Positions 1,309-44,664 of a stretch of 57,789 nt of DNA are shown piece after piece. This DNA comes from a virus. Location: positions 1-57,789 of IMG/VR virus record IMGVR_UViG_3300044617_001276, one strand, 5' to 3'. The stretch's first letter is position 1. Every line of letters begins with the position of its first letter. The notes under the pieces are model-generated. The model saw only the letters and a list, made by a program, of their open reading frames with translations. It was not told where the DNA came from and ran no database searches. Position numbers and translations under genes: made by a program.

Positions 1309-1574
1309 GCCATTCCCCTCATAAACACCACCGTGTCTGCATCTATAAATACCGCATTCATCATGCACCTCGGCGGAAACTCAATCACCGTAGACTTCAC
1401 TTTGCAGCCAGACCGATAACTATTCGGCACTTCGCATTGGATCGTTCCAAACTCTTCTTGATTATTGAAGAGAATCAGCGCGTCTCCTTGCGAAAATTCC
1501 CCGGCAGGAATTAACACCACCGGGGAATGCTCTATGTTCACGATCTTGTTGGCGTGTTCTTTAAGCAGCTTCAT
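1305..1574 (-). CDS. Small beta-rich phage protein (89 aa), fibre-end-like
   Basis: The start is taken at ATG 1574, whose ATGA overlaps the stop of the upstream gene; a longer in-frame start lies inside that gene and is rejected. The core (GDALILFNNQEEFGTIQCEV and STVIEFPPRCMMNAVFIDADTV) has the same layout as the C-terminal part of the 156-aa fibre protein at 7559-8029 (GDAVIIFNNTTAGITITCTI, then a hydrophobic ILFVSGTVCVVSG end). That suggests a shared small beta-sandwich module used in tail fibres. The resemblance is by eye; function unknown. Confidence 0.65.
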   Translation of the reverse strand: MKLLKEHANKIVNIEHSPVVLIPAGEFSQGDALILFNNQEEFGTIQCEVPNSYRSGCKVKSTVIEFPPRCMMNAVFIDADTVVFMRGMA

Positions 1575-2002
1575 GTCTTCGGATACTTTGCCTTGACCGC
1601 TGCAATCTGAGCCGTCATCGCAGCCGCAGCATCGCCACCCTTCCACATCGCATCCAGCTGGTCAGCCAATGATGGATACTCAGCACGCCGCTTGGCATAG
1701 TAGTCAGGGTTGTCAGGCCGCACGACCTCGGACTTATCAATATCCACTGTCTGTGGCTCACCACCCATAGGATCAGGAATCTCCCGAGTCTTAGGTGTCA
1801 ATGCAGCCCAAGCAGCTTCTTTGGCATCAATGTCAGCATAGATTGCCGCCTCTTTGGATGCGATATAAGCCGACAGATCAACGCCCGGAGGAATAAACAA
1901 CGTCCAGTCGTACGTCTGCCCGTTATGCTCAACCTTCAGATAAGCCAGCGCACGCTCTTCGTTTGGAGCAATGTTCGATGCAACGCCTTCCAATGAAATC
2001 AT
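1571..2002 (-). CDS. Phage tail-region protein with YPSLADQLDAMWKGG motif
   Basis: A 143-residue acidic protein. The C-terminal motif EYPSLADQLDAMWKGGDA is common in small phage proteins near tail-fibre genes, including XkdW-like and fibre-assembly proteins. The N-terminal part (LKVEHNGQTYDWTLFIPPGV) looks like a small beta domain. Its stop overlaps the next start as ATGA, and its own start lies just after the glycosyltransferase-methyltransferase stop. A fibre-assembly or tip role is plausible but is inferred only from position and the motif. Confidence 0.6.
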   Translation of the reverse strand: MISLEGVASNIAPNEERALAYLKVEHNGQTYDWTLFIPPGVDLSAYIASKEAAIYADIDAKEAAWAALTPKTREIPDPMGGEPQTVDIDKSEVVRPDNPDYYAKRRAEYPSLADQLDAMWKGGDAAAAMTAQIAAVKAKYPKT

Positions 2003-3351
2003 TTTGTAGCCTCCAATCTAAAGTTCTTGCCCGGATGCTGCCCAGTCGGCGGCAGTATCTGGATGTCTTTGAATCCTACATGGGCGCATAAGTCACGCAG
2101 AGAATCCGGCGTGTAACCCCACAGATGAGGAGACAACGCGCCGCCCTTTTCAGTCTCAGGCGTAATCCTGTCCACATGCGCCCCAAAAATACACATCGCC
2201 GTCATGTGCTGCTCAGCTCCCACTTGCATCAGGTAATCCTTGCAAAGCGCTGCCAAGTCAGGCGTCTCCAGCACCAACTTGCCGCCCTCTTTCAAGGTCT
2301 TGTACCAGTTGGTCAGGATGCCGGGAACACGGTGCTGCGGGAAATGCTCGATCACATGACTACCAAATATCTCATCTGCACAGCCCTCCGGCAGATCAAG
2401 CTCCATGATGTCCATCTTAATATCAGTGTCGCTGTGCATATCGACACCCATATAACCTTCCAACCGATCACGACCGCAGCCCATGTTGAAGCGGATAGGC
2501 TGGCCTTCCTCCTGCATCTGAGCAAGGATTGCCGCATACCCAGCACCGGGGCCAGTGCCTTTAGGCAGACGATCAGCCCAGCGCCGATCAATAAACTCTT
2601 TGTCATCCAGCGTCAGCGGTCTGGTGGGCGGGATGTTGGTGTAGTAGTTCTTCAAATCCACCGACGGATGCGCCGTATACATACCTGTCGCCAAGTCCAT
2701 GTGCAGACACTGAACGTCCGTGTTGACTAGCAGCTTTGTGCCGCGTTTGTGCAAACGATGAACAAAGAAGTTGTCCTCACCAATGAACGGTATCTCATCA
2801 TTGATGTTGTTGCCAATACAGCAGAAGGGCAAGTCAGGGTTTTCTGCCTTCATGTCTTGCAGGATCTTGATTGGGATCAGCATGATGTCCATGCCAGTCT
2901 GCCAAGCGTCAATGATCTGCCCCGGATCGACGTTCGGGATTGTGATCCAGTCACCCTCACGAACCATGATCATCGCGTCTGAGCACTTGATGTAGTACAC
3001 GCCTGTGATCACCGCGTCAGGATACTGCTCGGACGTGCGCATCAGCTTCTTGAATGCGTCGTAAGGAACAACCGTATCCTCACCAATAAAGAGCATGTAC
3101 TTGGCACCAGACTCCAGCGCCTGCTCTATCAGGTAGTTACGGGCAACGTCCACCTTCTCACCGCCGATATTGCAAAAGCCATGTGAGAAACCCATCAGGT
3201 CTACATGCAGACCGTCATACCCATCAAAATTCTGTGCGGCTGTTTCTTCTAAGTTGCGACGCGGTTGTGCAATCACGACGTACGGCTTAATAGTTTTAGA
3301 CTCGTCGTAGATTTCCTGCATCGTTGCGATGATTTTCTCTCGGTTGTACAC
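1999..3351 (-). CDS. Glycosyltransferase-methyltransferase fusion protein
   Basis: A 450-residue two-domain enzyme. Residues 1-240 look like a GT-A glycosyltransferase: a nucleotide-binding start, an ARNYLIEQAL helix, a YMLFIGEDTVVP strand with acidic pair E91-D92 (the usual DxD position), and a later FIGEDNFFVHR with a downstream CLHMD that fits the second acidic/His site. Residues 285-440 are a class I SAM methyltransferase: FNMGCGRDR (glycine-rich motif I, about 288-296), GVDMH (302-306), DEIFGSHVIEHF and a GGKLVLETPD strand. It lies beside the fibre genes, so it may modify a virion protein or a glycan. Substrate unknown. Confidence 0.8.
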   Translation of the reverse strand: MYNREKIIATMQEIYDESKTIKPYVVIAQPRRNLEETAAQNFDGYDGLHVDLMGFSHGFCNIGGEKVDVARNYLIEQALESGAKYMLFIGEDTVVPYDAFKKLMRTSEQYPDAVITGVYYIKCSDAMIMVREGDWITIPNVDPGQIIDAWQTGMDIMLIPIKILQDMKAENPDLPFCCIGNNINDEIPFIGEDNFFVHRLHKRGTKLLVNTDVQCLHMDLATGMYTAHPSVDLKNYYTNIPPTRPLTLDDKEFIDRRWADRLPKGTGPGAGYAAILAQMQEEGQPIRFNMGCGRDRLEGYMGVDMHSDTDIKMDIMELDLPEGCADEIFGSHVIEHFPQHRVPGILTNWYKTLKEGGKLVLETPDLAALCKDYLMQVGAEQHMTAMCIFGAHVDRITPETEKGGALSPHLWGYTPDSLRDLCAHVGFKDIQILPPTGQHPGKNFRLEATK

Positions 3352-3372
3352 ACTCTCTCCTTTGTGTGGTGG

Positions 3373-4755
3373 TTAAAATTTATTGAAGAACGGCGATAGG
3401 GCGTAGCCTATATTTCTTGTTGTTCCGGTGGATATTTTTTCGCCTCTAACTGCACCATACGGTATAAAAACTATTGAACCGTCTTGAGCCAAAACTCCAC
3501 CAGAGTATCTGCCACCAATAGCAGTATTTATTAAGGCATACGTAGATACAACTCCTGTTGCTGATATTTTTTGACCTCTATCAGCATCATGTGGAACAAA
3601 GTGTATATCTCCATTTGGAGCTAATATGCCACCTTGATAAGCTGTTCCTGTTGTGTAAACTAAAGAGTAAGTCGAAACAACGCCAGTCACTGATATTTTT
3701 TGTCCTCTGTTTGCGCTGTCTGGAACAAAATGTATATCTCCGTTTGGAGCAAGAACGCCCCCAGCATATGGACCAGCCGTATTAACTAAAGAATAAGTTG
3801 AAACAACGCCCGCTGCTGAGATTTTTTGTCCAACAGGTGCATTGTGCGGAACAAAATGTATGTCTCCGTTAGGCGCTAATACGCCGCCCCAATACGCACT
3901 AGCTTGCGTGCGAACTAAGGAATAAGTAGATACTACTCCAGCGGATGATACTTTTTGACCAACCGCTGCATTCCAAGGCACAAAATGAATGTCGCCGTTT
4001 GGCGCGAGCACGCCACCCCTGTATTTGCTGCCGCCAGCCGTATAAACTAATGAGTAAGTAGAAACAACGCCAGAAGCGTCTACCTTCTGACCTCTAAGAG
4101 CATCGTATGGAACAAAATGTATATCACCATTAGATGCTAATACACCGCCATAAGCGTTCAAGCCGGATGTTGTATAAACTAATGAGTAGGTAGATACAAC
4201 GCCAGTCGCTGAGATTTTTTGCCCACGAACCGCCTTTATGGGAACAAAATGAATGTCCCCGTTAGGCGCAAGCACCCCGCCAGAATAAGCGTCTGCTATT
4301 GTGTAAACCAAGCTAAACGTACTCACCGCCCCTGCCGTATTGTTATTGTTGTACGGCACACCGTTGATGACTGTCCGGTCTAGCTCTTTCTTCAGGTTTG
4401 TCCACGCCACCAGATCAGTGCCTACCTGACTGGTATCCCCCTGCGGTACTGTTCCTTCTGTCGCGTCGGCGGGATAAGTACAAAACACATCCTTAGTGCC
4501 TGCTGCCCAATCTACTTTATTGTTGCTGTTGGAAGACTCAAAGACTGTATCCCGCGATAAGGTTGTGCCGCTAGACGTATAAGTACCAATCCCTATTTCC
4601 CAAGCAGTGCCGTTAGTAATGCAGTAGTAAGTTTGGTTGGCGTTGCCAATGACTGAGAAGTCTTGGAATCCTGCTACCGCCGCGCCGAGCGTGAACGTGC
4701 CAGTACCAGTCGTTGTGCTTGTTACTTTTACTCTATCTTTAACGACATAAGTCAT
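3373..4755 (-). CDS. Seven-repeat fibre/receptor-binding protein, copy A
   Basis: A 460-residue protein. The N-terminal region (about 1-115) is shared with copies B and C (KDRVKVTSTTTGTGTFTLG and GTYTSSGTTLSRDTVF) and is typical of phage fibre attachment parts. Seven repeats of about 43 residues follow, each of the form VVSTYSLVYT, a variable loop, GGVLAPNGDIHFVP, a variable loop, GQK. It ends in a conserved FNKF. Seven equal beta-rich repeats suggest a seven-bladed propeller, probably for receptor or glycan binding. The repeat region is visibly AT-rich compared with its neighbours. It lies 10 bases after copy B. Confidence 0.75.
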   Translation of the reverse strand: MTYVVKDRVKVTSTTTGTGTFTLGAAVAGFQDFSVIGNANQTYYCITNGTAWEIGIGTYTSSGTTLSRDTVFESSNSNNKVDWAAGTKDVFCTYPADATEGTVPQGDTSQVGTDLVAWTNLKKELDRTVINGVPYNNNNTAGAVSTFSLVYTIADAYSGGVLAPNGDIHFVPIKAVRGQKISATGVVSTYSLVYTTSGLNAYGGVLASNGDIHFVPYDALRGQKVDASGVVSTYSLVYTAGGSKYRGGVLAPNGDIHFVPWNAAVGQKVSSAGVVSTYSLVRTQASAYWGGVLAPNGDIHFVPHNAPVGQKISAAGVVSTYSLVNTAGPYAGGVLAPNGDIHFVPDSANRGQKISVTGVVSTYSLVYTTGTAYQGGILAPNGDIHFVPHDADRGQKISATGVVSTYALINTAIGGRYSGGVLAQDGSIVFIPYGAVRGEKISTGTTRNIGYALSPFFNKF

Positions 4756-4765
4756 GGCGTAATCC

Positions 4766-6160
4766 TTAGAACTTGTTCAGGTATGAGCTTAGGCAGGTGT
4801 CAAGGCCGAAGGGTATGGCGGGGTTGGTGGAGATTTTTTGGCCCCTTACTCCGCTTTGAGGAATGAAGTAAATTTCTCCAGTAGGTGATAACACTCCACC
4901 CCTAGAATTTGGATTTGATTGAACTAATGTGTAGGTAGACACAACGCCTGTCAAATAATTAATTTTTTGACCTCTTGCCGCATTACTTCCCGGAACAAAA
5001 TGTATATCGCCGTTAGGAGCTAACACGCCGCCAACATAATTTGTATATTGTTCAATTATAGAAAATGTAGAAACAACACCTGATGTTGAAATTTTTTGTC
5101 CAACAGGGGCTGACTCAAAAGGGACAAAATAAATTTCGCCATTTGCGGCAAGAACGCCCCCGATGTTTACCTTACCATCAATAAATGTATAAGCTAATGA
5201 ATACGTAGACACAACACCTGCTGCTGATACTTTTTGCCCTCTGCGAGAGCTATATGGAACAAAATGAATATCTCCATTAGGAGCGAGAACCCCGCCAATA
5301 TATGCGCCTTGAGCGCGATCCGATGTATATACCAATGAATAAGTAGATACCACTCCAGCGGCAGAAACTTTTTGCCCAACCGCTGCAAAATATGGAACAA
5401 AATGTACGTCTCCGTTAGGAGCTAACACGCCGCCAGCATAAGCTGTTGCTGTTGTATAAACCAATGAGTATGTAGACACAACCCCAGAAGCATTTATTTT
5501 TTGCCCTCTATTCGCACCGTGAGGAACAAAATGTATATCTCCATTTGATGCTAATACGCCACCAATATAATTGCCAGCCGTATATACAAGAGAATAAGTT
5601 GATACTGTTCCAGTAAGATAATTAATTTTTTGGCCTACAACTGCACCATAAGGCACAAAATGTATATCCCCATTGGGGGCTAAAACACCCCCCCAATAAT
5701 CTCCTACTGTATTTACTACGCTATACGTACTAACTATCCCTGCAACACCGTTATTCCTAAACGTCACCCCAGCGTTGATGCTCTGGTACAGGTTCTTCTG
5801 GAAGTTGTCAAACGCTACGCCATCCGTGCCAATAGAACTGTTGTCCCCTGTCGGCGCTGATCCCTGTGTGTTCTCTGCTGGTTGCGGTACGTAGACATCT
5901 TTCGACCCCGCCGCAAAGTCAATCACCGATCCGGTAGACGAAGCCAGCACGGTATCGCGGGATAAGGTCGTACCACTAGCGGTATACGTGCCTATTCCTA
6001 CTTCCCACTGAGTTCCACCTACGATGGTGTAATAGGTCTGATTGCCATCGCCCACGCCGGAAAAGTTCTGATAGCCAGTAGATGCTGCCCCTAGCGTGAA
6101 CGTACCTGTCCCTGTCGTGGTGCTCGTAACTTTTATGCGGTCTTTGGTAACAAACGCCAT
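4766..6160 (-). CDS. Seven-repeat fibre/receptor-binding protein, copy B
   Basis: A 464-residue paralogue of the neighbours on both sides, with the same N-terminal part (KDRIKVTSTTTGTGTFTLG) and exactly seven GGVL(A/S)xxG repeats. Two repeats carry an inserted NYLTG before the next blade (INYLTG). One (about residue 370) has GEIYFVPFESAPVGQ, which is longer than usual. The variable positions are the loops just before GGVL and just after FVP; the strands are nearly constant. It ends LSSYLNKF like copy C (LSSFLNKF). A role in adsorption is inferred from its place in the fibre cluster and from the loop-only variation. Confidence 0.75.
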   Translation of the reverse strand: MAFVTKDRIKVTSTTTGTGTFTLGAASTGYQNFSGVGDGNQTYYTIVGGTQWEVGIGTYTASGTTLSRDTVLASSTGSVIDFAAGSKDVYVPQPAENTQGSAPTGDNSSIGTDGVAFDNFQKNLYQSINAGVTFRNNGVAGIVSTYSVVNTVGDYWGGVLAPNGDIHFVPYGAVVGQKINYLTGTVSTYSLVYTAGNYIGGVLASNGDIHFVPHGANRGQKINASGVVSTYSLVYTTATAYAGGVLAPNGDVHFVPYFAAVGQKVSAAGVVSTYSLVYTSDRAQGAYIGGVLAPNGDIHFVPYSSRRGQKVSAAGVVSTYSLAYTFIDGKVNIGGVLAANGEIYFVPFESAPVGQKISTSGVVSTFSIIEQYTNYVGGVLAPNGDIHFVPGSNAARGQKINYLTGVVSTYTLVQSNPNSRGGVLSPTGEIYFIPQSGVRGQKISTNPAIPFGLDTCLSSYLNKF

Positions 6161-6170
6161 GACAATAATC

Positions 6171-7559
6171 CTAGAACTTGTTCAGGAAAGAACTGAGGCA
6201 GATGCCGGGGCCGAGCGGGGAGCCGGGGTTGGTAGAGATTTTTTGAACTGGTTGATTGGTATTACTATCAAATGTAGGAAGAAAATAAATTTCTCCGTTT
6301 GGCGTTAAAACACCACCGGCATAAGCACCGACTGTCGTATAAATTAAAGAATAAGTTGATACTACGCCTGCTGCTGATACTTTTTGACCAACCGTTGCAT
6401 TTCTCGGAACAAAATGAATGTCGCCGTTAGGGGCTAACACTCCGCCACGATAACCATTTGTTAATGTATAAACTAAAGAGTATGTAGTCACTACTCCAGC
6501 AATAGATATTTTTTGACCTCGACGTTCTGGAACATAATGAATGTCACCGTTTGGTGCTAAAACACCTCCCCAAGACCCTGCTCCCGTATAAACTAAAGAA
6601 TAAGTTGATACTACGCCAGAGATCGAAATCTTTTGTCCTACGCGAGCAAAGTCAGAAATAAAATGTATATCTCCGTTTGGGGCTAAAACACCACCTCGAT
6701 ATGCTTCGCTTGTTGTATACACAAGAGAATATGTTGAAACAACACCAGCAGAAGATACTTTCTGTCCACGCACCGCCTCATTAGGAACAAAGTGTATATC
6801 TCCGTTGGGGGCAACAACACCACCTATATACGCACCATTAGAATTTGTGTAAACCAAAGAATAAGTAGAAACAACACCAGAAGCAGATATTTTTTGACCA
6901 ACCTGAGCGGCATAAGGAACAAAATGAATATCGCCATTAGGAGCTAAAACTCCGCCACTATATGTGCCTACCGTATAAACCAATGAATAAGTAGAACTAA
7001 CGCCCGTAACAGGGTTAATTTTTTGTCCTCTATTTGCTGACTTTGGAACAAAATGTATATCACCGTTTGGGGCTAAAACACCACCTTCATAAGCGGCTTG
7101 TGTTGTGTAAACCAAATTAAACGTACTTACAATCCCATTAGTTCCATTGTTCCCGAACGTAGTACCACCTGCTACACCGTTATTAAGCGCTGCTTGAAAC
7201 GCAGTCCAGCCTGAGAGATCAGTACCTATCTCACTATCATCACAGTACGGAACGCCCAAAGGCATCGCCGCAGCTGGGTAAGCACACAGCACATCTTTGG
7301 TACCGGCTGAGAAATTAACTAGCGCACCGCTATTCGATGAACCAAACACTAGCTGTCTGGATAACGTCGTACCTGAAGAGGTGTACGTACCCTTGCCTAC
7401 TTCCCACTCAGTCGTGCCTTTGATGACGTAGTAGGTTTCGTTGCCGTTGCCGATGACAGAAAAGGACTGATAGCCTGCCGCTGCAGAACCAAGGGTGATC
7501 GTCCCCGTACCTGTTGTCGTGGTAGTGGACTTGACTCTGTTTTTGAGTACGAGCGCCAT
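6171..7559 (-). CDS. Seven-repeat fibre/receptor-binding protein, copy C
   Basis: 462 residues from ATG 7559 (MALVLKNRVKSTTTTTGTG). This start overlaps the TAA of the upstream gene as TAATG, so a longer start at 7586 is rejected. It has seven repeats like copies A and B. The fifth is shortened (DIHYVPERRGQK), and the last has an insertion (FDSNTNQPVQK). The N-terminal module is again the shared one. Three complete copies in tandem with the same repeat number point to gene triplication and then loop divergence. The DNA of the repeats is AT-rich and has many similar runs that could recombine. Confidence 0.75.
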   Translation of the reverse strand: MALVLKNRVKSTTTTTGTGTITLGSAAAGYQSFSVIGNGNETYYVIKGTTEWEVGKGTYTSSGTTLSRQLVFGSSNSGALVNFSAGTKDVLCAYPAAAMPLGVPYCDDSEIGTDLSGWTAFQAALNNGVAGGTTFGNNGTNGIVSTFNLVYTTQAAYEGGVLAPNGDIHFVPKSANRGQKINPVTGVSSTYSLVYTVGTYSGGVLAPNGDIHFVPYAAQVGQKISASGVVSTYSLVYTNSNGAYIGGVVAPNGDIHFVPNEAVRGQKVSSAGVVSTYSLVYTTSEAYRGGVLAPNGDIHFISDFARVGQKISISGVVSTYSLVYTGAGSWGGVLAPNGDIHYVPERRGQKISIAGVVTTYSLVYTLTNGYRGGVLAPNGDIHFVPRNATVGQKVSAAGVVSTYSLIYTTVGAYAGGVLTPNGEIYFLPTFDSNTNQPVQKISTNPGSPLGPGICLSSFLNKF

Positions 7560-8029
7560 TAGGTGACATTCCCTGAAACAACACAAACGGTGCCAGATAC
7601 AAACAGGATGCTTGCAATACCACGAGTCGCTAATGTCATCGTCGCCTTATCAGTGTCCGTTCCGGCAATATAAGCCGTCGTAATCGTACAAGTAATCGTA
7701 ATCCCTGCGGTCGTATTGTTGAAGATAATGACAGCATCACCTGCCGCAAACGTCGCATCAGGGATCGTAATCGAGCCGCCTGTGCCAACTTCAATAGTCT
7801 GACCAACGTCTGTGGTCAATAAGGTGTAATTGGTTGTTTTTGCAGCGCCTGAAATTGGAATGCCGGGTGCTGCCAACATCTCTACCGTTCCAGACGAATT
7901 CTCGCAGTACAACTTCATGTCTGCGATGTTCAATCCAAGTTCACCTTGCGCTAGGTTCGCAGCAGAAGGCGCGTTGCCTGCGGTGGTGCTGTGATAGAGT
8001 TGGATTGGTGTGTAACCGGTTTGTGCCAT
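7559..8029 (-). CDS. Tail-fibre/collar-type structural protein (156 aa)
   Basis: The N-terminal part (TPIQLYHSTTAGNAPSAANL, then AQGELGLNIADMKLYCENSS) has the LAxGELxxNxADxKLY motif common in phage fibre proteins. The C-terminal half is a small beta module (GGSITIPDATFAAGDAVIIF, ending ILFVSGTVCVVSG) that resembles the 89-aa protein at 1305-1574. It is coupled by TAATG to copy C of the seven-repeat proteins and may act as an attachment or trimerisation piece for them. Structural role inferred from motif and context. Confidence 0.7.
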   Translation of the reverse strand: MAQTGYTPIQLYHSTTAGNAPSAANLAQGELGLNIADMKLYCENSSGTVEMLAAPGIPISGAAKTTNYTLLTTDVGQTIEVGTGGSITIPDATFAAGDAVIIFNNTTAGITITCTITTAYIAGTDTDKATMTLATRGIASILFVSGTVCVVSGNVT

Positions 8030-8032
8030 GAT

Positions 8033-8377
8033 TTACCTCAAATTTTCGATTTTGTACAACGTCTTCATGTAAATCGCCGCCATCTCATCGAGGATATTTT
8101 CCAATGCCGGCACATTTTTAGCGATTTTCGCTCGATTCTCAACAAGCCACAACATTTCGTCTCTCAGCACTTCTGCGATGTCCGGCACACCGTCGGGCGC
8201 TTTTTCCATTTGGCCGAACGTGCCTTGATGCGCTTCCACATATTTGTCGATGGAACCAATTATCTCTTCATAAAACTCGCCCAACGCTTCATGCTGAGAA
8301 AACGAGTTGGTTGTCCAATGGTTGGCGTGCGCGGCGTTACGCACTTTGAACACACGGGTTATTAGCTTGTCCAACAT
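8033..8377 (-). CDS. Dps/ferritin-like small helical protein
   Basis: A 114-residue, all-helical protein. The stretch HANHWTTNSFSQHEALGEFY, followed by EEIIGSIDKYVEA, resembles the Dps signature in which a His-Trp pair and a later His lie on the first helix (HWNxxGxxFxxLHxxFDE). A second helix with acidic residues (LRDEMLWLVENRAKIAKN, then ENILDEM) would complete a ferritin-like bundle. Similar short proteins occur in T4-like cyanophages (DUF5856-type, from memory). It is unusual among fibre genes and may be a metal-binding or virion-associated protein. Iron-binding residues cannot be confirmed here. Confidence 0.55.
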   Translation of the reverse strand: MLDKLITRVFKVRNAAHANHWTTNSFSQHEALGEFYEEIIGSIDKYVEAHQGTFGQMEKAPDGVPDIAEVLRDEMLWLVENRAKIAKNVPALENILDEMAAIYMKTLYKIENLR

Positions 8378-11085
8378 CAGAACGTGCCTCCAGTGATGCC
8401 CGCAGTGACCGCATTGGTGGACGGGTTGTAAGTTATCCCTGCATCTACCCCCAACGCTTGATTTCCTGTGGTCGAAGCCGCCACGAATGGAATGTAGAAG
8501 TCAGCATTGGTGCTGGTGGCAGTTGTGGCGACATTTGTCGCATTTGTGGCCGATCCTACGGACAACGTGCTTTGATCAACGTATTGAGGCGCTGTTGCGC
8601 CAGCAGTCAAAACATAATTCGTTGTCCCGAGAGACAAAAATGTCGTTGTTCCAGCACCAGAGTTGTAAGGCAAAGCGCCAGCCGTGCCGCCAGCAATGTT
8701 TGTCGCCGTCGTCGCTGACGTCGCGCTGGTGGCGCTCGTCGCTGTTGCGGCGTTGCCGCTGATGCTGATATTCCAAGTTCCTGAAGCGCCCGTGCCGTCT
8801 GCTTTCGGCGCGCCTACAGTGCTGTAATCAATCGTTCGAGCGGCTGATCCATCAAACGTCGCTCCAGCCGCAGCACCGCCTGTATTTGTGAATGTTACAG
8901 AATTGGCTACAGAACCAGCAGACCCTGTCGTATTCTGGTTGAACGTAGGCCATGTTGCGCTGGCTGTCGTCCAATTCCAAGTTCCTGTTGGCGTGTATGA
9001 CCCACCCAACTCAAGAATCGTGTCGTCAGCATCGCGCACGGTCTTGGTGCGATTTGTGGACGTTATTCCTGTGATGGTGAACAGACCGGTTTGTCCGACC
9101 ACAGACAAGCTCGCTGCTGAACCTGTCGTGTTCTGGTTCAGCGTCGGAATGTCAGCCGCCAAAAGCGCGCGGAACGATGGCGTACCCGGCGAACCCGTCG
9201 TCGGTCCAGCGAACACATAGTTGGCAGTTTGGTTTGCATAAACCGCTGTCAAGGTGCCAGAGCCTGTGACCGGCGAATTGCTGATGGTGAAGTCTGCAGG
9301 CAACGACAAACCGACAGAAGTCACAGTGCCAGCGCCTGCGGAAGACCACTGGAAAGCTGAACCAGACCATTGCAAAAATGTGCTGCCGACCGTTGGCGCT
9401 GTGATGAAAGAAGAAGCGCCTGCACCGGTGTTGTAAACTATTTGGTTTGCGTTGCCGCCTGCAACATTGGTCGCAGAACCGACAACCAAACTGGATTGAG
9501 CAACATTCTCCCAGCGCATGTCCGTGCTGTCATAGACGATCACGTCGCCATTGTTCAGCGTGCCGAATTGCACATTGCCGTCAGTGCCGCCCAAAACCGA
9601 GCCGAACGTCGGGCGCACAAACAAGATTCCGTTAGAAGTTCCGACATGCACGACCGCTGCGACTGTTGCGATCGCGTTGGGTGTCGTAGGCTTGGTTTTT
9701 GTCAAGCCACCGGTGACAAGCGGGTTGTAGTACAACTCTTGGCCTTGCGTCCAAGCTTCAACGCCGCCGGTGGTGTTGAGGTTCTTGACTTCGCCGAACT
9801 GAGTGACAAATATCCAATCGTTGGTGGTGCCGGTTTCGTTGGCGACACCGAGGATGTAGTTGGCTTGCGTCGGTTGCAGTCCTGTGGCTGGCGCAGCAGT
9901 CAAGCCGCCTGAAGCGCCCAGCGTGCCGGTGAACATCATCACTTGCCCTTTGGTCGCCGGGGCGGTGAGTTTCACGCGGAAATAAGTTTCTTCGCCGATC
10001 TTTTGGACGACCGCGCCATTCATTCGGAACGCGAGCGTTTGGAACTGATCGTTGTTGTCGTAATAAAGACGAGCTGTAGCGTCAGTCGGCAACGGCGAAA
10101 GCGCCGAGGCAAAATCGACGTAATCTGTGTCCACGGTCGTGAACGTGCCTGCGGCGGGAGTCGACCCGCCAATGACCGTTCCGTCGATTGTGCCGCTGTT
10201 AATGTCGACGTTGGTCAGCGTTTTCCCGTCTAACGTGTCAGGGATGTCGTCGTTGACGAGCGCACGGAATGTCGGCAATGCATCCGGTCCAGACACAGGC
10301 CCGGCACGCACCGTGTTGGCTGGGCGCGGAATGTCCACGTCCATGTTGGCCCACAAATAAGCGCCAGTGCCGCCAGAAACAAGCACCTGCCCATAAACAC
10401 CCACAGGACCAATGTAAAGGCCGTCAGCGCCTGACCAAACAATCGCACCGGCGTCTGGCACCAACGAGCGGCTTGTGCCACCTTGGTCGACGGGCAAGAT
10501 GCCATTGATTTGCTGTTGGTCAGACAAATCCACAGCAGGGTGCTGATGGTCGGCGCGCGCTATTTCGGTGGAAACACCCGCAGCGCCTGTGTCGTCCAAC
10601 ACCAGCGGCGTTGCGTTGCTCAAGTTTGCGTTGAGCGTGACGTCAGTGTTGAGTGCGCCGCCGCCCGTCAACCCTGTGCCGGCAATGACTTGTCGGCTTT
10701 CAGGCACGTAGCCGCTGATGGTCGCCGGGATTGTCGTGGCAGCGGTGACGCGCCCGGTGGCGTCCACTGTGAACACCGGGATGTTCGTAGACGTTCCATA
10801 AACGCCGGGTGTGACACCGGTGTTGGCCAACTCGGCTGTCCCTACGCCGCCCGGAGCGATGCTCAACGTCACGTTGGAGCTCAGTTGCCCACCGCCATCC
10901 AACCCTGTGCCAGCCAGCACCGCGCGAGAGGTCGGCACACCCGCCACAGACAACAAATCACCAACACGAATTTGGTAATTGTTGCCCTGATAGACAATCA
11001 TCATCAGCGAGTTTTCGTCCGCCACCGGGGCGGTGGGCAACTGCGTGATTCTTGTCGGTATCAGGTTGCTAGGTACGTCTGACAT
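8377..11085 (-). CDS. Large tail fibre protein (902 aa)
   Basis: A long, Gly/Ser/Thr/Asn-rich beta protein. The N-terminus (RITQLPTAPVADENSLMMIV and then YQGNNYQIRVGDLLS) resembles phage fibre attachment domains. The body has repeated motifs such as AGTGLxGGGxLxxxVTL (at about 58 and 138), NQNTTGSA (at about 650 and 725) and VVGSATNVAGGNANQIVYN-type segments, typical of trimeric fibre shafts. It ends in ITGGTF, similar to the VDGGTF end of the fibre protein at 56140-57339. It probably contacts the host surface. Its stop and the Dps-like start overlap by one base at 8377. Confidence 0.8.
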   Translation of the reverse strand: MSDVPSNLIPTRITQLPTAPVADENSLMMIVYQGNNYQIRVGDLLSVAGVPTSRAVLAGTGLDGGGQLSSNVTLSIAPGGVGTAELANTGVTPGVYGTSTNIPVFTVDATGRVTAATTIPATISGYVPESRQVIAGTGLTGGGALNTDVTLNANLSNATPLVLDDTGAAGVSTEIARADHQHPAVDLSDQQQINGILPVDQGGTSRSLVPDAGAIVWSGADGLYIGPVGVYGQVLVSGGTGAYLWANMDVDIPRPANTVRAGPVSGPDALPTFRALVNDDIPDTLDGKTLTNVDINSGTIDGTVIGGSTPAAGTFTTVDTDYVDFASALSPLPTDATARLYYDNNDQFQTLAFRMNGAVVQKIGEETYFRVKLTAPATKGQVMMFTGTLGASGGLTAAPATGLQPTQANYILGVANETGTTNDWIFVTQFGEVKNLNTTGGVEAWTQGQELYYNPLVTGGLTKTKPTTPNAIATVAAVVHVGTSNGILFVRPTFGSVLGGTDGNVQFGTLNNGDVIVYDSTDMRWENVAQSSLVVGSATNVAGGNANQIVYNTGAGASSFITAPTVGSTFLQWSGSAFQWSSAGAGTVTSVGLSLPADFTISNSPVTGSGTLTAVYANQTANYVFAGPTTGSPGTPSFRALLAADIPTLNQNTTGSAASLSVVGQTGLFTITGITSTNRTKTVRDADDTILELGGSYTPTGTWNWTTASATWPTFNQNTTGSAGSVANSVTFTNTGGAAAGATFDGSAARTIDYSTVGAPKADGTGASGTWNISISGNAATATSATSATSATTATNIAGGTAGALPYNSGAGTTTFLSLGTTNYVLTAGATAPQYVDQSTLSVGSATNATNVATTATSTNADFYIPFVAASTTGNQALGVDAGITYNPSTNAVTAGITGGTF

Positions 11086-34045: not shown

Positions 34046-34500
34046 ACTGCCCCATTTGTGGTTCGGAGAGCACGGTCATCGGTGTGGCTCCAAAGCAGCA
34101 AGACCATTGCGTAGAGTATGCACGCATATGCGACCGCAAGCATCGGTTCACAACAGTCGAGGTGCACGTGTCGCAGCTCGGTGACAAGCGGGAATTCGCT
34201 TGCGCAGTACGCAACATAACAAGGCGCATCGGTCGGTTCAATCGTGACTTGCTCATCTTCATGGACAAACGTCCAGCGAAAGTCGTCGCGAGCGAACTGG
34301 GTATCACCTCTACGCGTGTGCGGCAAATACGCGCATCGCAGTATGAGTTCTCTCCGCACAAGAGAATTGCGAAAATTGATTTAAACTCAGAAAGGAACAA
34401 TTATGAAAGTCACGCTCATCAGCACAACGCCGGAAGCCAAGGAACTCTTGATCTTCACGAAGTCAACCCGGCTGACCATGTCGCCGGGGTTGATGGATGA
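34042..34500 (+). CDS. NrdR-like zinc-ribbon and HTH protein
   Basis: Starts with GTG 34042 (GTGA overlap with the flavoprotein stop). The N-terminus NCPICGSESTVIG, with CVEYARICDRKHRFTTVEVH, resembles the NrdR zinc ribbon (CPxC...RRxCxxCxxRFTTxE), though the second metal half reads C-x-R-K-H instead of CxxC. Residues of about 80-105 (AKVVASELGITSTRVRQIRA) form a helix-turn-helix. The frame stays open 98 bases into thyX, giving a Gln/His-rich tail (HAHQHNAGSQG) that may be accidental. It is a likely regulator of nucleotide-metabolism genes. Confidence 0.6.
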   Translation: MNCPICGSESTVIGVAPKQQDHCVEYARICDRKHRFTTVEVHVSQLGDKREFACAVRNITRRIGRFNRDLLIFMDKRPAKVVASELGITSTRVRQIRASQYEFSPHKRIAKIDLNSERNNYESHAHQHNAGSQGTLDLHEVNPADHVAGVDG

Positions 34501-35122
34501 AATCCGCGCATGGCCGGAGGAAAAGAAACTCGCCGAACTTGAATATATGGCCAACACCATTCCCAGCTCTTGGGAGTTCGTTGACTACGTATTCATGATT
34601 GAAGGCGTCAGCCGCGCGTTCACTCATCAGTTCGTGAGATCACGTCAAGGTTCGTACGCGCAGCAAACGATGCGTGTGCTCAACATGGGCGAATATGATT
34701 ACGTCTACACCGACAGGATTCTCGCTGACGTGCAGAAGCTCGGTTTGGTCGACATCATCAATGAGAACATTCGGCTCTGTTACAGCAAGCTGATTGAGCT
34801 CGGGTTGCCTGCGGAAGATGCACGCGGCATCTTGCCGACAAACATCGCCACCAACATCGTCGCCAAGTTCAACTTGCGCGCCTTTGTCGACCTCGCCAAG
34901 AGTCGCACCGGTGGACGCACACAAAACGAATACCAGAAGGTCATGAACGCCATGGTCGACGAAGTATTGAAAGTGCACCCATGGGCTGAGAAGTTCTTGT
35001 TCCAAGCCGGGCGAGATTACTTCGCGGAGATCGAAGCGTTCGCCGAGCGCGAATATGGCGGCAACTTGCTCAAGAAAGGCGAGCTGCTTAAGATTGTTGA
35101 CAAGATGCGCAAGGGTGGCTGA
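34403..35122 (+). CDS. thyX: Flavin-dependent thymidylate synthase ThyX
   Basis: Makes dTMP from dUMP using methylenetetrahydrofolate and FAD. The 239 residues contain the ThyX motif as R79-S80-R81, S84, A86, T89, R91 (VRSRQGSYAQQTMR), a variant of RHRxxSxNxxSxR. RGILPTNIATNIVAKFNLRA and LAKSRTGGRTQNE fit the later conserved region. An extended ribosome-binding site (CTCAGAAAGGAA) precedes the ATG, although the start lies inside the preceding NrdR-like frame. It provides thymidine for phage DNA, beside other nucleotide genes. Confidence 0.9.
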   Translation: MKVTLISTTPEAKELLIFTKSTRLTMSPGLMDEIRAWPEEKKLAELEYMANTIPSSWEFVDYVFMIEGVSRAFTHQFVRSRQGSYAQQTMRVLNMGEYDYVYTDRILADVQKLGLVDIINENIRLCYSKLIELGLPAEDARGILPTNIATNIVAKFNLRAFVDLAKSRTGGRTQNEYQKVMNAMVDEVLKVHPWAEKFLFQAGRDYFAEIEAFAEREYGGNLLKKGELLKIVDKMRKGG

Positions 35123-35968: not shown

Positions 35969-36252
35969 CAACAGCAGCAGACATCCTGGCCGAAATGGCC
36001 GACACCTACCGTGAGCGCAACAAGGTCTACGGTGACAACTACAAGCGTGTCGGTGCCGTCATGGCGGCAATGTTCCCGAACGGTGTCGACTTGTTCACCG
36101 AGGAAGACTACAACGTCTGGCACCTTTTTGAGTTGATGGTCGTGAAGCTCACCCGGTTCGCCAACAGCGGCCTGACGCACGAAGACTCGATCCATGACGC
36201 TGCAGTTTACGCCGCCATGGTCGAATCATTGATCAGAAAGGAAAAACAATGA
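35965..36252 (+). CDS. DUF6378-like protein, possible MazG-type nucleotide hydrolase
   Basis: 95 residues from ATG 35965 (ATGA overlap with the HAD gene). The pattern ADTYRERNKVYGDNYKRVGA, FELMVVKLTRFAN, THEDSIHDAAVYAAM fits DUF6378-type phage proteins, which are all-helical and MazG-like in layout (a YGD start, then E...K, then a D...DxxxYA end). Hydrolysis of noncanonical nucleotides is the usual suspicion for this fold. It fits the nucleotide-metabolism neighbourhood. Confidence 0.62.
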   Translation: MTTAADILAEMADTYRERNKVYGDNYKRVGAVMAAMFPNGVDLFTEEDYNVWHLFELMVVKLTRFANSGLTHEDSIHDAAVYAAMVESLIRKEKQ

Positions 36253-36926
36253 GCAAGATTTTGGTGACCGGCTCTGGGGCCGGGCTCGGCAAGCTCGTCG
36301 TTGCAGCGTTGCGCCGCGATGGGCATGACGTAATTGGTTTCGACCGCAAGAACGGCAATGACGTGGTCGACCCGCAGGAAACATTTGGTGACTGCCCGGC
36401 GTTGGACATCCTCATCAACTGCGCGGGGATAAACGTCACAGGTTGGTTGGAGGATTTCCCTGAGGAAAGCTGGGATGACGTGATGAACATAAACGCCAAG
36501 GGCATCTTCCGCATGACGCAGTGGGCGCTACCGGCGTTGGTGAAGTCGAAAGGTACCGTGCTGAACATTGTGAGCAATGCGTCGCACATGCCAATGACGA
36601 CGTCTCTTGCCTACAACGCCTCCAAAGGGGCCGCGCACATCATGACGTTGCAGCTGGCCCGTGAGTTAAGCAAGCGGCACGGCATCACCGTCTTCGGCAT
36701 CAGCCCCAACAAGCTCAAGGGTACCGAAATGTCCAAAGACATCGAGGAACAAGTGATTAAGCATCGCGGCTGGACGCGCGAATATGCAGAGCAATACCAA
36801 ATCAATGCGTTGCTCGCAGGTGAGGAAACAGACCCAGCACAGCTCGCTGAGTTCATTGCTTTCCTTCTTTCAACCAAGCCGCGTCACAAGTTCCTGACCG
36901 GCTGCATTCTTCCTTATGGAGCTTGA
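36249..36926 (+). CDS. Short-chain dehydrogenase/reductase (SDR)
   Basis: A 225-residue NAD(P)-dependent oxidoreductase. It has the cofactor motif TGSGAGLG (7-14), INCAGIN (about 56-62, the NNAG position), and catalytic Ser-109, Tyr-122 and Lys-126 (YNASK) with the correct 13- and 4-residue spacing. All parts needed for activity are present. The ATG overlaps the DUF6378-like stop. Phage SDRs are uncommon and the substrate is unknown; a sugar, nucleotide-sugar or carrier-bound acyl group is possible. Confidence 0.88.
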   Translation: MSKILVTGSGAGLGKLVVAALRRDGHDVIGFDRKNGNDVVDPQETFGDCPALDILINCAGINVTGWLEDFPEESWDDVMNINAKGIFRMTQWALPALVKSKGTVLNIVSNASHMPMTTSLAYNASKGAAHIMTLQLARELSKRHGITVFGISPNKLKGTEMSKDIEEQVIKHRGWTREYAEQYQINALLAGEETDPAQLAEFIAFLLSTKPRHKFLTGCILPYGA

Positions 36927-42953: not shown

Positions 42954-43289
42954 ATGTCAAAAGTCTACGCGCCACAAGTACCCAGCAAGTACGATCCGGC
43001 GACAAAATTGTGGGTTCCCACACTCAACCTAGATCACGCCAAGTCGTTCGGCGAAGTTGTGGTCATGTTGCCGCCCAACGCCAACCGGCTGCACATCAAC
43101 CCATTGGTGACAGCCTTGCGCGACCAAATGAAAGACTTCACGGAGGAAGACTACATCATCGCGGTCGGTGACCCATCGCTCATCGCAGCAGCGGCTTGCA
43201 TCGCCGCGCGCAAGACGGGTGGCTTGCTGCGCATCTTGAAGTGGGACAGACAATCTAACAGTTACATCGCAGTGGAGGCCAACGTATGA
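42954..43289 (+). CDS. Conserved early protein of unknown function (111 aa)
   Basis: ATG 42954 is chosen over GTG 42951 by spacing to TTTAGAAAGGAA. The body has LNLDHAKSFGEVVVMLPPNA and TEEDYIIAVGDPSLIAAAAC, followed by a small hydrophobic helix and GGLLRILKWDRQ. The pattern recalls small phage proteins made with single-stranded DNA-binding and recombination genes, but I cannot name it. Confidence 0.65.
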   Translation: MSKVYAPQVPSKYDPATKLWVPTLNLDHAKSFGEVVVMLPPNANRLHINPLVTALRDQMKDFTEEDYIIAVGDPSLIAAAACIAARKTGGLLRILKWDRQSNSYIAVEANV

Positions 43290-43780
43290 GTGACTTGCAA
43301 CGTGCCGTGCAGCTGGCTGAGCTGCTGATGAAGTTGCGTGAAAACGTCACGCGGCTGGAAGGTGAGTTGGAAACAGCCAAAAAAGACATGCGCCGGGTTG
43401 AGCAAGAGGATTTGCCTGAGCTGATGCAAGAGCTCGGACTGGAAACATTCAAGCTCAAGACCGGTGAAACAATCGAAGTCAAGCCAGAAGTCGAATGTTC
43501 CATCAGCGAAGAGCGCCGCGCAGCAGCGCACGGCTGGTTGACGGAAAAAGGGTTCGGCGGCTTGATCAAGACAGAAGTCGTCGCCAAGTTCGGTCGCGAC
43601 CAGCGCGATGAAGCAGTCGCTTGTGCTGAGAAAATCGGCGGCGAGATGATTGAGCGTGTGCACCCCAGCACGCTGAAGTCGTTCGTCAAGGAACAAATGG
43701 CCGCAGGCACGGCCATACCTTTCGATCTGTTCGGGATACACCCGTACAGCAAGGTAAAGATCACTGCTGCAAAGAAGTGA
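43286..43780 (+). CDS. Conserved coiled-coil early protein (164 aa)
   Basis: The N-terminal 50 residues form a coiled coil (LRENVTRLEGELETAKKDMR). A conserved-looking alpha/beta part follows: LPELMQELGLETFKLKTGET and HGWLTEKGFGGLIKTEVVAK, ending HPSTLKSFVKEQMAAG and PFDLFGIHPYSKVKI. I have seen this pattern beside single-stranded DNA-binding genes of podoviruses. ATGA overlap with the previous gene. Role unknown, probably linked to replication. Confidence 0.65.
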   Translation: MSDLQRAVQLAELLMKLRENVTRLEGELETAKKDMRRVEQEDLPELMQELGLETFKLKTGETIEVKPEVECSISEERRAAAHGWLTEKGFGGLIKTEVVAKFGRDQRDEAVACAEKIGGEMIERVHPSTLKSFVKEQMAAGTAIPFDLFGIHPYSKVKITAAKK

Positions 43781-43787
43781 ACGCTTA

Positions 43788-43812
43788 TTGAGGCGGCGTT
43801 TCTAAGCCTCAA
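43788..43812 (+). other. Leader stem-loop before ssDNA-binding protein gene
   Basis: TTGAGGC (43788-43794) and GCCTCAA (43806-43812) form a seven-pair stem with an 11-base loop, 24 bases before the ATG at 43837. Without a T run it is more likely a translational or stability element than a terminator. Confidence 0.35.
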
Positions 43813-43836
43813 AATCATCAAGAAAGTGAGTACACC

Positions 43837-44664
43837 ATGAGCAAAAAAGAGCTCGCCAAAGTTGAAGAAAAAGCGACAGCGCTGGTCGTCGCTGATATGG
43901 ACTTCGCCGCTGATGCTGGCGCAGGCATGGAAAATGCCGGTCAGGAATCATTCGCGATTCCGTTTCTGAGCCTGCTGCAAAAGGGTTCGCCGCAAGTGGA
44001 CGAAGCCTCTGGCGCGGCACTCGAAGGCGCACGCGCAGGTATGTTTTTCGAGAACGTCACAGGCCGCTTGTTTTCCGGCAAAGACGGCGTGATCATCGTT
44101 CCGTGTTCTTACCGTCGTGAGTTTTTGCGTTGGGGCGCGCGCGCCAATGGCGGCGGCTTGCGCGGCGTTTATTCGCCCGAGGAAGTTGCAGAGATGCGCA
44201 CCAAAGGTCAGGTTGTTGAGCTGGACGGGCGGCTCTACGCGCCTGAACAGGACAAGTCGATCAATCCAGAGAAGTCTGACCGCTTCAACGACACACGCAA
44301 CCATTACGTCTTGATCATCGATCAGGAAACCGGCGCATGGAGTGAGGCGCTTCTTTCCCTGACGTCCACGCAAATCAAGAAGTCGAAGATGCTGATGTCG
44401 GCGCTCGCCTCCGTCAAGCTGAAGAACGGCGCAGGCCAGCTCTATACGCCGCCGACCTTCGCGAACTTCGTGCGCGTCACGTCAGTGGGCGAAAGCAACG
44501 ACAAGGGCACATGGTTCGGCGTGAAGTTTGAGTTGGCCGGTCAGGTCGACCGTTCAGAAGTCTACGCGGCTGCGAAGGCATTCCACGCCAACATCGCCAA
44601 AGGCGGCGTCCAAGTCAAGTACGAAGACAACCCATCAGAAGTTGGAGAAACTGGCGGGTTCTAA
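43837..44664 (+). CDS. Probable ssDNA-binding protein (275 aa)
   Basis: The N-terminal helical part is Ala/Glu-rich. The central part (SFAIPFLSLLQKGSPQVDEA, GKDGVIIVPCSYRREFLRWG, NHYVLIIDQETGAWSEALLS) fits the pattern of proteins annotated as single-stranded DNA-binding in environmental podoviruses. The beta centre could be an OB fold and the C-terminus is acidic with aromatic end (SEVGETGGF), as in T7 gp2.5 and SSB tails that contact partners. A flanking stem-loop on each side could tune its mRNA. Confidence 0.6.
   Translation: MSKKELAKVEEKATALVVADMDFAADAGAGMENAGQESFAIPFLSLLQKGSPQVDEASGAALEGARAGMFFENVTGRLFSGKDGVIIVPCSYRREFLRWGARANGGGLRGVYSPEEVAEMRTKGQVVELDGRLYAPEQDKSINPEKSDRFNDTRNHYVLIIDQETGAWSEALLSLTSTQIKKSKMLMSALASVKLKNGAGQLYTPPTFANFVRVTSVGESNDKGTWFGVKFELAGQVDRSEVYAAAKAFHANIAKGGVQVKYEDNPSEVGETGGF

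What the first reader, a model, noticed from the sequence alone, without database searches (positions are those of the whole stretch)
1999..3351. Glycosyltransferase-methyltransferase fusion beside the fibre genes
One protein joins a GT-A-like domain (acidic pair E91-D92 and a later GED..H site) to a complete class I methyltransferase domain. It lies between fibre-type genes, not among metabolic genes. It could build a methyl-capped glycan on the virion, on the seven-repeat proteins or on host surface sugar. Thr/Ser-rich fibres nearby are possible acceptors.
Basis: partly seen in the sequence, partly recalled or inferred. Interest (0 to 1): 0.7.

Follow-up and report, generated by a model that had tools for sequence, protein, structure and literature searches.

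The report
Phage propeller-adhesin sugar-tagging gene cassette
A phage enzyme that joins a sugar-attaching domain to a methyl-attaching domain turns out to travel between unrelated phages together with (usually) three propeller-shaped tail-fibre-type proteins, so it most likely decorates those proteins with a sugar, although no acceptor has been shown.

Summary
The minus-strand ORF 3351..1999 encodes a 450-aa protein with a GT-A glycosyltransferase domain (residues 1-265) and a class I methyltransferase (MT; about 284-450). The GT domain folds confidently (pLDDT 93, pTM 0.90) and its nearest solved structure, by sequence profile and by fold, is A197, a viral glycosyltransferase of STIV. A197's catalytic Asp151 matches D193. 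The first Asp of A197's DXD motif is Gly90 in the whole family; the acidic residue at 91 and D92 are kept.

The larger finding is the setting. In 44 of 44 distinct homologues fetched by this protein with upstream DNA, a seven-repeat propeller gene lies directly upstream. Usually there are three, followed by GT(-MT) and a ~145-aa protein. In one contig the two halves lie 41 kb apart but co-occur. The cassette occurs in ~60-kb phages, T4-like phages, 230-238-kb phages and one with an HK97-type portal. The GT is the constant part; the MT may be fused, swapped, separate, degenerate or absent.

Best reading: the GT adds a sugar, optionally methylated, to the propeller adhesins during late assembly. 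Modification of the host glycan that the propellers bind is the main rival. No acceptor or donor is shown.

The parts
1999..3351 (-). GT-MT fusion protein, 450 aa (GTG start at 3351)
2557..3351 (-). GT-A glycosyltransferase domain, residues 1-265
   Evidence: AlphaFold2 pLDDT 93.4, pTM 0.90; Foldseek/VIA best match STIV A197, Z 17.6, rmsd 2.9 over 178; profile E 2.5e-6 to A197; phrog_34859 glycosyltransferase 7.5e-7
3076..3081 (-). E91-D92, aligned with E62-D63 of the A197 DXD motif; preceded by invariant Gly90 where A197 has D61
2773..2781 (-). G191-E192-D193; D193 aligns with A197 D151, the proposed catalytic base
   Evidence: PMC4187194
2002..2502 (-). class I SAM methyltransferase domain, residues 284-450, motif I N289-M-G-C-G, acidic D304
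6171..7586 (-). propeller protein P1 (7 repeats; likely true start near 7559)
4766..6160 (-). propeller protein P2 (7 repeats)
3373..4755 (-). propeller protein P3, 21 bp upstream of the GT-MT start; PF24684 Vgb_lyase 61.6 bits (cut-off 50)
1571..2002 (-). 'c2', 143 aa, overlaps the GT-MT stop by 4 bp (ATGA); follows the GT in 62 of 66 distinct homologues
   Evidence: phrog_9114 5.7e-10, function unknown
3357..3360 (-). GGAG, ribosome-binding-site-like sequence just before the GTG

Best explanation
The protein is a soluble, late-expressed, virus-encoded glycosyltransferase that acts as the tailoring enzyme of a transferable adhesin cassette. It transfers one sugar from a host nucleotide-sugar onto the three seven-repeat propeller proteins encoded just upstream (or another part of the same fibre complex) while they are made in the cytoplasm. 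The fused SAM-dependent methyltransferase then caps that sugar by O-methylation in this lineage. Shown here: GT-A fold with a conserved catalytic base and acidic pair; MT fold with SAM motif; purifying selection; near-strict co-occurrence and co-transfer of GT, propellers and c2; MT optional. Inferred: catalytic activity, sugar donor, acceptor, order of the two steps, late expression, and presence of the propellers on the virion.
For: GT fold and active site: pLDDT 93.4; A197 Z 17.6; then the LH3 glycosyltransferase-like domain, mimivirus R699, Mnn9, COLGALT1, TarP, SpsA; A197 E 2.5e-6; DXD and Asp151 positions matched. A197 is an essential viral GT thought to glycosylate the STIV coat protein (PMC10551542). 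Linkage: 44/44 GT-fetched homologues have a propeller immediately upstream, and 40/44 runs of three or more propellers fetched independently are followed directly by the GT, 42/44 within four genes; 45 of 50 complete runs are exactly three. In G001 (109,580 bp) propellers and GT+c2 are 41 kb apart yet both present, so adjacency alone does not explain the link. The cassette is in phages with unrelated backbones: T4-like portal in 9 of 13 carriers tested, window-type terminase only in the ~60-kb ones, neither in the 230-238-kb ones; the GT of a 162-kb T4-like contig is 89% identical to the window's and nests among 60-kb phages. The propellers look like adhesins: invariant blade scaffold with hypervariable positions 14, 15, 17, 37-39 and 42 of a 43-aa blade. 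MT under selection: omega 0.07-0.11. Precedent for GT+MT in one virion-glycan enzyme: PBCV-1 A064R (PMC9614988).
Against: No acceptor, donor or activity is shown. Co-transfer with an adhesin is equally expected if the GT modifies the receptor that the adhesin binds. One lineage (L155/L157, fragments) has three propellers and c2 but no GT found. The first Asp of DXD is Gly in the whole family, so activity is likely but not certain. The strongly conserved propeller C-terminal tail is also present in GT-less propellers of L157, and its LNKF end in those of Cylindrospermopsis phages, so it is not a GT-specific acceptor signal.
Confidence: 0.5

Rival explanations
1. The GT(-MT) modifies a host surface glycan (LPS, capsule or exopolysaccharide) that is the receptor of the propeller adhesins. 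This would mask the receptor so that progeny do not stick to debris or already infected cells. Enzyme and adhesin would then travel together because they share a target.
For: Explains the co-transfer of GT and hypervariable adhesins and the optional, exchangeable MT cap, as methyl caps end some O-antigens (general knowledge). In podovirus ctKR88 a distant GT and a neighbouring separate MT sit in a cluster annotated with further glycosyltransferases.
Against: The GT is highly conserved (57-100%) while the propeller surfaces vary, whereas a receptor-specific enzyme should change with the receptor. It is one soluble enzyme without gtrA/gtrB-type partners (general knowledge of seroconversion cassettes). 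It sits in the late fibre/lysis region.
Confidence: 0.22
2. The GT-like protein is not catalytic but a dedicated assembly factor or chaperone for the propellers, with the MT domain a passenger.
For: Strict gene linkage; the first Asp of DXD is Gly in all members; the MT can be degenerate or missing.
Against: The catalytic-base motif GED and the acidic pair [E/D]-D are conserved in the whole family, and GED and D92 even in 20-26% identical GTs. L155/L157 keep three propellers without a GT found. Strong purifying selection on both domains.
Confidence: 0.12
3. The enzyme glycosylates another virion protein of the fibre complex (for example the 902-aa protein 8377-11085), not the propellers.
For: Fibre genes lie next to the cassette in the window and in L055 and L065.
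Against: Only the propellers and c2 are shared by nearly all carriers; the neighbouring fibres differ between phages.
Confidence: 0.12
4. It hypermodifies phage DNA, like the DNA glycosyltransferases of T4-like phages.
For: Phage glycosyltransferases often act on modified DNA bases (cited in PMC12619734).
Against: The window carries ThyX and no hydroxymethylated-base pathway gene was seen among the replication-region genes scanned; the gene is in the fibre region and linked to propellers, not to replication genes.
Confidence: 0.04

Closest known systems
A197 of Sulfolobus turreted icosahedral virus (PDB 2C0N)
   Same: Viral GT-A glycosyltransferase domain; best match by sequence profile (E 2.5e-6) and by fold (Z 17.6); same GED catalytic-base motif (D193 = D151); virus that assembles in the cytoplasm and has a glycosylated coat protein.
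   Different: A197 has DED where the phage family has G[E/D]D; no methyltransferase; not linked to propellers; archaeal virus of a different kind.
PBCV-1 A064R (chlorovirus)
   Same: One virus protein with GT and class I methyltransferase domains that builds and methyl-caps the end of a glycan on the virus's own capsid protein (PMC9614988).
   Different: A064R has two GT domains plus MT and extends an N-glycan of a eukaryotic virus; homology to it was not tested here; the phage enzyme has one GT and its acceptor is unknown.
Mycobacteriophage virion glycosyltransferases
   Same: Phage-encoded GTs with glycans on capsid and tail-tube C-termini (reported second-hand in PMC12619734).
   Different: Acceptors there are capsid and tail tube, not propeller adhesins; no direct sequence comparison was made.
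Separate GT and MT genes in podovirus ctKR88 (MW202524)
   Same: Neighbouring GT ('has synthase') and methyltransferase genes, 25% identical over both parts.
   Different: Unfused, in a larger glycan gene cluster; no propellers named in that region's annotation.
Virginiamycin B lyase (Vgb) beta-propellers, PF24684
   Same: Seven repeats matching the Vgb propeller model (P3 61.6 bits against cut-off 50).
   Different: P1 and P2 fall below the cut-off; here they are tandem fibre-type proteins with hypervariable loop positions and a conserved NK[FLY] tail; no lyase function implied.

Membership tests
GT-A fold glycosyltransferases | Rossmann-like GT-A fold | tested here: met
   Model pLDDT 93.4, pTM 0.90; A197, Mnn9, TarP and SpsA at Z 12-17 over 165-178 residues
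GT-A fold glycosyltransferases | DXD metal/nucleotide motif | tested here: inconclusive
   G90-[E/D]91-D92: first Asp replaced by Gly in all close members; second Asp invariant
GT-A fold glycosyltransferases | C-terminal xED catalytic base | tested here: met
   G191-E192-D193 invariant also in 20-26% identical GTs; aligned with A197 D151
CAZy GT2 / Pfam PF00535 | Pfam gathering score reached | tested here: not met
   14.7-15.9 bits against 23.3
Virion-protein glycosyltransferase (works like A197) | Glycosylates a virion protein | not testable with these tools
   No acceptor data; only gene linkage
PBCV-1 A064R-type GT-MT capping enzyme | MT methylates the sugar added by the GT in the same chain | not testable with these tools
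   Domain order GT then MT is the same; activity unknown
Class I SAM-dependent methyltransferases (Methyltransf_23/11) | Pfam cut-off and GxG motif I with acidic motif II | tested here: met
   29.9 bits against 27 (PF13489), 23.7 against 21.2 (PF08241); G291, G293, D304 invariant in A1; lost in the L088 type
Phage DNA glycosyltransferases | Accompanied by a modified-base pathway | tested here: not met
   ThyX only; no hydroxymethylase or nucleotide-sugar gene among the replication-region ORFs scanned
O-antigen seroconversion (gtrABC-type) cassettes | Flippase gtrA and bactoprenol transferase gtrB beside the GT | tested here: not met
   Neighbours are propellers, c2 and lysis genes; no such Pfam match

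The most novel reading that the evidence does not exclude
A self-contained, horizontally mobile 'glyco-adhesin' cassette: (usually) three diversifying seven-bladed propeller adhesins that come with their own dedicated glycosyltransferase, and an exchangeable methyl-capping module, shared by ~60-kb, T4-like and 230-238-kb phages. It would set host attachment or recognition through a phage-made sugar on the fibre tip.
Probability: 0.4. Interest if true: 0.78.

Novelty: new variant of a known kind. Interest (0 to 1): 0.62.

Why it matters
Virus-made glycans on virions are known for chloroviruses, STIV and mycobacteriophages, but a dedicated GT that is inherited and transferred as a unit with receptor-binding-type propellers across unrelated tailed phages was not found in the papers searched. 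If the propellers are the acceptors, phage host recognition would include a phage-encoded sugar coat with an exchangeable cap. That is directly testable by co-expression and mass spectrometry.

Tried and rejected
(1) First fold of the whole fusion with 18 close homologues gave pLDDT 62 and pTM 0.42 with the GT part poor; replaced by a GT-only job with 27 diverse sequences. (2) Profile of 17 close GTs against the PDB found nothing; adding 20-26% identical single-domain phage GTs brought up A197. (3) Searches for relatives in one genome per bacterial/archaeal species found none for the GT-MT or the propeller, and annotated phages gave only 25% matches for the GT and 36% propeller matches in two Cylindrospermopsis phages; the genome scans use short patterns and miss distant kin. 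(4) The conserved propeller tail was considered as an acceptor site but also occurs in propellers without a GT. (5) The idea that P1, P2 and P3 are three old orthologous lines: only P3 clusters clearly by position (5 changes against 14.4 shuffled; P1 and P2 weak), so a fixed heterotrimer is unproven. (6) Apparent exceptions to GT-propeller linkage were followed: L109 and L084 are one contig, L161 has a GT hidden by my ORF caller, L139/L150 have an insertion in P3; L155/L157 remain. (7) An inserted ~165-aa ORF in P3 of jumbo contigs with a 'PRTGSHSI' motif was tested as a possible sulfotransferase: no Pfam match, no PDB match for the L139 copy. (8) Phmmer of the full protein against the PDB gave only weak MT hits.

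Full report
What is there. On the minus strand, 3351..1999 encodes a 450-aa protein starting at GTG, with AAAGGAG just upstream and a 4-bp ATGA overlap with the next gene. Going downstream on the same strand the order is: a 902-aa protein (11085..8377), a DUF5856 protein, a fibre-type protein (8029..7559), three seven-repeat proteins P1 (7586..6171), P2 (6160..4766) and P3 (4755..3373), the fusion, a 143-aa protein 'c2' (2002..1571), a 113-aa ORF, a 158-aa phrog_6637 protein and an endolysin. The finding's coordinates are right; the gene is at the downstream end of the fibre block.

Domains. The C-terminal part passes the Pfam cut-offs for class I methyltransferases (PF13489 and PF08241), and the first structural model finds class I MTases. 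The N-terminal part misses the Pfam GT2 cut-off but matches phrog_34859 'glycosyltransferase' (7.5e-7). A GT-only model built from 27 sequences, relatives 20-94% identical to the window, has pLDDT 93.4 and pTM 0.90. Its best solved relative is A197 of STIV by Foldseek (E 1.2e-7), by VIA-align (Z 17.6, rmsd 2.9, 178 residues) and by profile search of PDB sequences (E 2.5e-6). In that alignment A197's DXD (D61-E62-D63) falls on G90-E91-D92 and its catalytic base D151 on D193. A197 is described as having the DXD motif and Asp151 as catalytic base (PMC4187194), as essential, with D151E delaying replication, and as the possible glycosyltransferase of the coat protein (PMC10551542).

Homologues. A scan of viral contigs gave 61 loci, 63-100% identical, and scans with alignments more. 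GT and MT are both under purifying selection (omega 0.016-0.054 and 0.07-0.11 for pairs not saturated). Nothing was found in one genome per bacterial or archaeal species, and only 25% matches in annotated phages.

The cassette. Annotating all loci with HMMs for GT, MT, propeller and c2 shows a fixed order: propeller, propeller, propeller, GT(-MT), c2. Of 44 distinct GTs fetched by the GT itself with at least 1 kb upstream, 44 have a propeller immediately upstream. Fetching by the propeller instead, 40 of 44 runs of three or more are followed directly by the GT and 42 within four genes. Forty-five of 50 complete runs are exactly three propellers, and 10 of 11 carrier records searched hold exactly three propeller matches, the eleventh having a split third. 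Exceptions were followed: in a 109,580-bp contig the propellers (104-108 kb) and GT+MT24+c2 (about 62 kb) are far apart but both present. L161 has one propeller, GT and c2. Only L155/L157, contig fragments, have propellers and c2 without a GT.

Unrelated phages share it. The window's terminase has relatives only in the other ~60-kb carriers tested, at 33-37%. Nine of 13 carriers have a T4-type portal; L065 has a tail sheath and L055 an HK97-type portal (PHROG matches; the morphotype names are my reading); two carriers of 230-238 kb have neither terminase nor portal of these kinds. Yet the GT of the T4-like L034 contig is 89% identical to the window's and nests among those of 60-kb phages. The cassette has therefore moved between phage lineages.

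The MT is the variable part. The same GT is found fused to this MT, fused to a Methyltransf_24-type MT (PF13578, 4.1e-20; L055 type), alone (~270 aa; L107, L120, L145, L143, L087, L161, L232), next to a separate MT gene (L241-L243), or fused to an MT with its SAM motif destroyed (L088 type). On the GT tree these states need six changes. So glycosyl transfer is the core activity and methylation an exchangeable addition.

The propellers. Most of the 140 propellers give seven repeats of about 43 residues. Scaffold positions are mostly over 90% conserved, while positions 14, 15, 17, 37-39 and 42 are hypervariable. This is the pattern expected of a binding surface on a fixed scaffold, so they are probably adhesins (inference). 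A C-terminal tail with N at -3 in 139 of 140 and K at -2 in 137 is shared by all three; its LNKF end is also on the fibre-type propeller of Cylindrospermopsis phages, which have no annotated GT beside it. P3 clusters by position across phages, P1 and P2 weakly.

Mechanism. Most likely the enzyme uses a host nucleotide sugar (no nucleotide-sugar genes were seen among the window ORFs scanned) and glycosylates the propellers or their complex in the cytoplasm late in infection; the MT then methylates the added sugar, as in PBCV-1 A064R, where GT and MT domains of one protein build a methyl-capped capsid glycan (PMC9614988). Fold, active-site conservation and genetic linkage are shown; acceptor, donor, activity, timing and virion location are inferred. 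The main rival, that the GT masks the host receptor bound by the propellers, explains the co-transfer equally well and can be separated only by experiment. DNA modification is unlikely (ThyX only; location).

Verdict. It is a new variant of viral virion-associated glycosyltransferases, notable for its mobile three-propeller cassette.

Noticed in passing
L139:10258-12561, L150:10258-12951, L219: In contigs of 230-238 kb (and one of 86 kb) the third propeller is split: a glycine-rich fibre-like end, then a ~165-aa ORF with a 'PRTGSHSI'-like motif, then a 136-aa propeller remnant before the GT. The inserted ORF has no Pfam match.
   Followed up: partly
L066:7851-8477 and 489 matched stretches in viral contigs: A widespread single-domain phage GT family (208 aa, near Anp1/GT62) sits close to the putative major head protein gene in a different phage group and carries an intact DAD motif; it is 20-26% identical to the window GT.
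   Followed up: partly
window 43286-44664: Two proteins match Pfam families of the phage Pam3 (gp33- and gp34-like), a possible hint at the host.
   Followed up: no
window 34403-35122 and 36249-36926: ThyX thymidylate synthase and a FabG-like short-chain dehydrogenase gene on the plus strand.
   Followed up: no
window 8033-8377: A DUF5856 / 'starvation-inducible transcriptional regulator' PHROG protein (phrog_858) lies between two fibre genes, an odd place for a regulator.
   Followed up: no
L169:5550-8942 and L170:5550-8966 (Cylindrospermopsis phages): A 1130-1138-aa protein ends in seven near-identical propeller repeats and a ...SLNKF/SLNKI tail, with no annotated GT beside it.
   Followed up: partly
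L109:5885-6622: A GIY-YIG-type homing-endonuclease-like ORF (by eye) lies soon after the three propellers in the contig whose GT is 41 kb away; such an element may have helped to separate the cassette.
   Followed up: no
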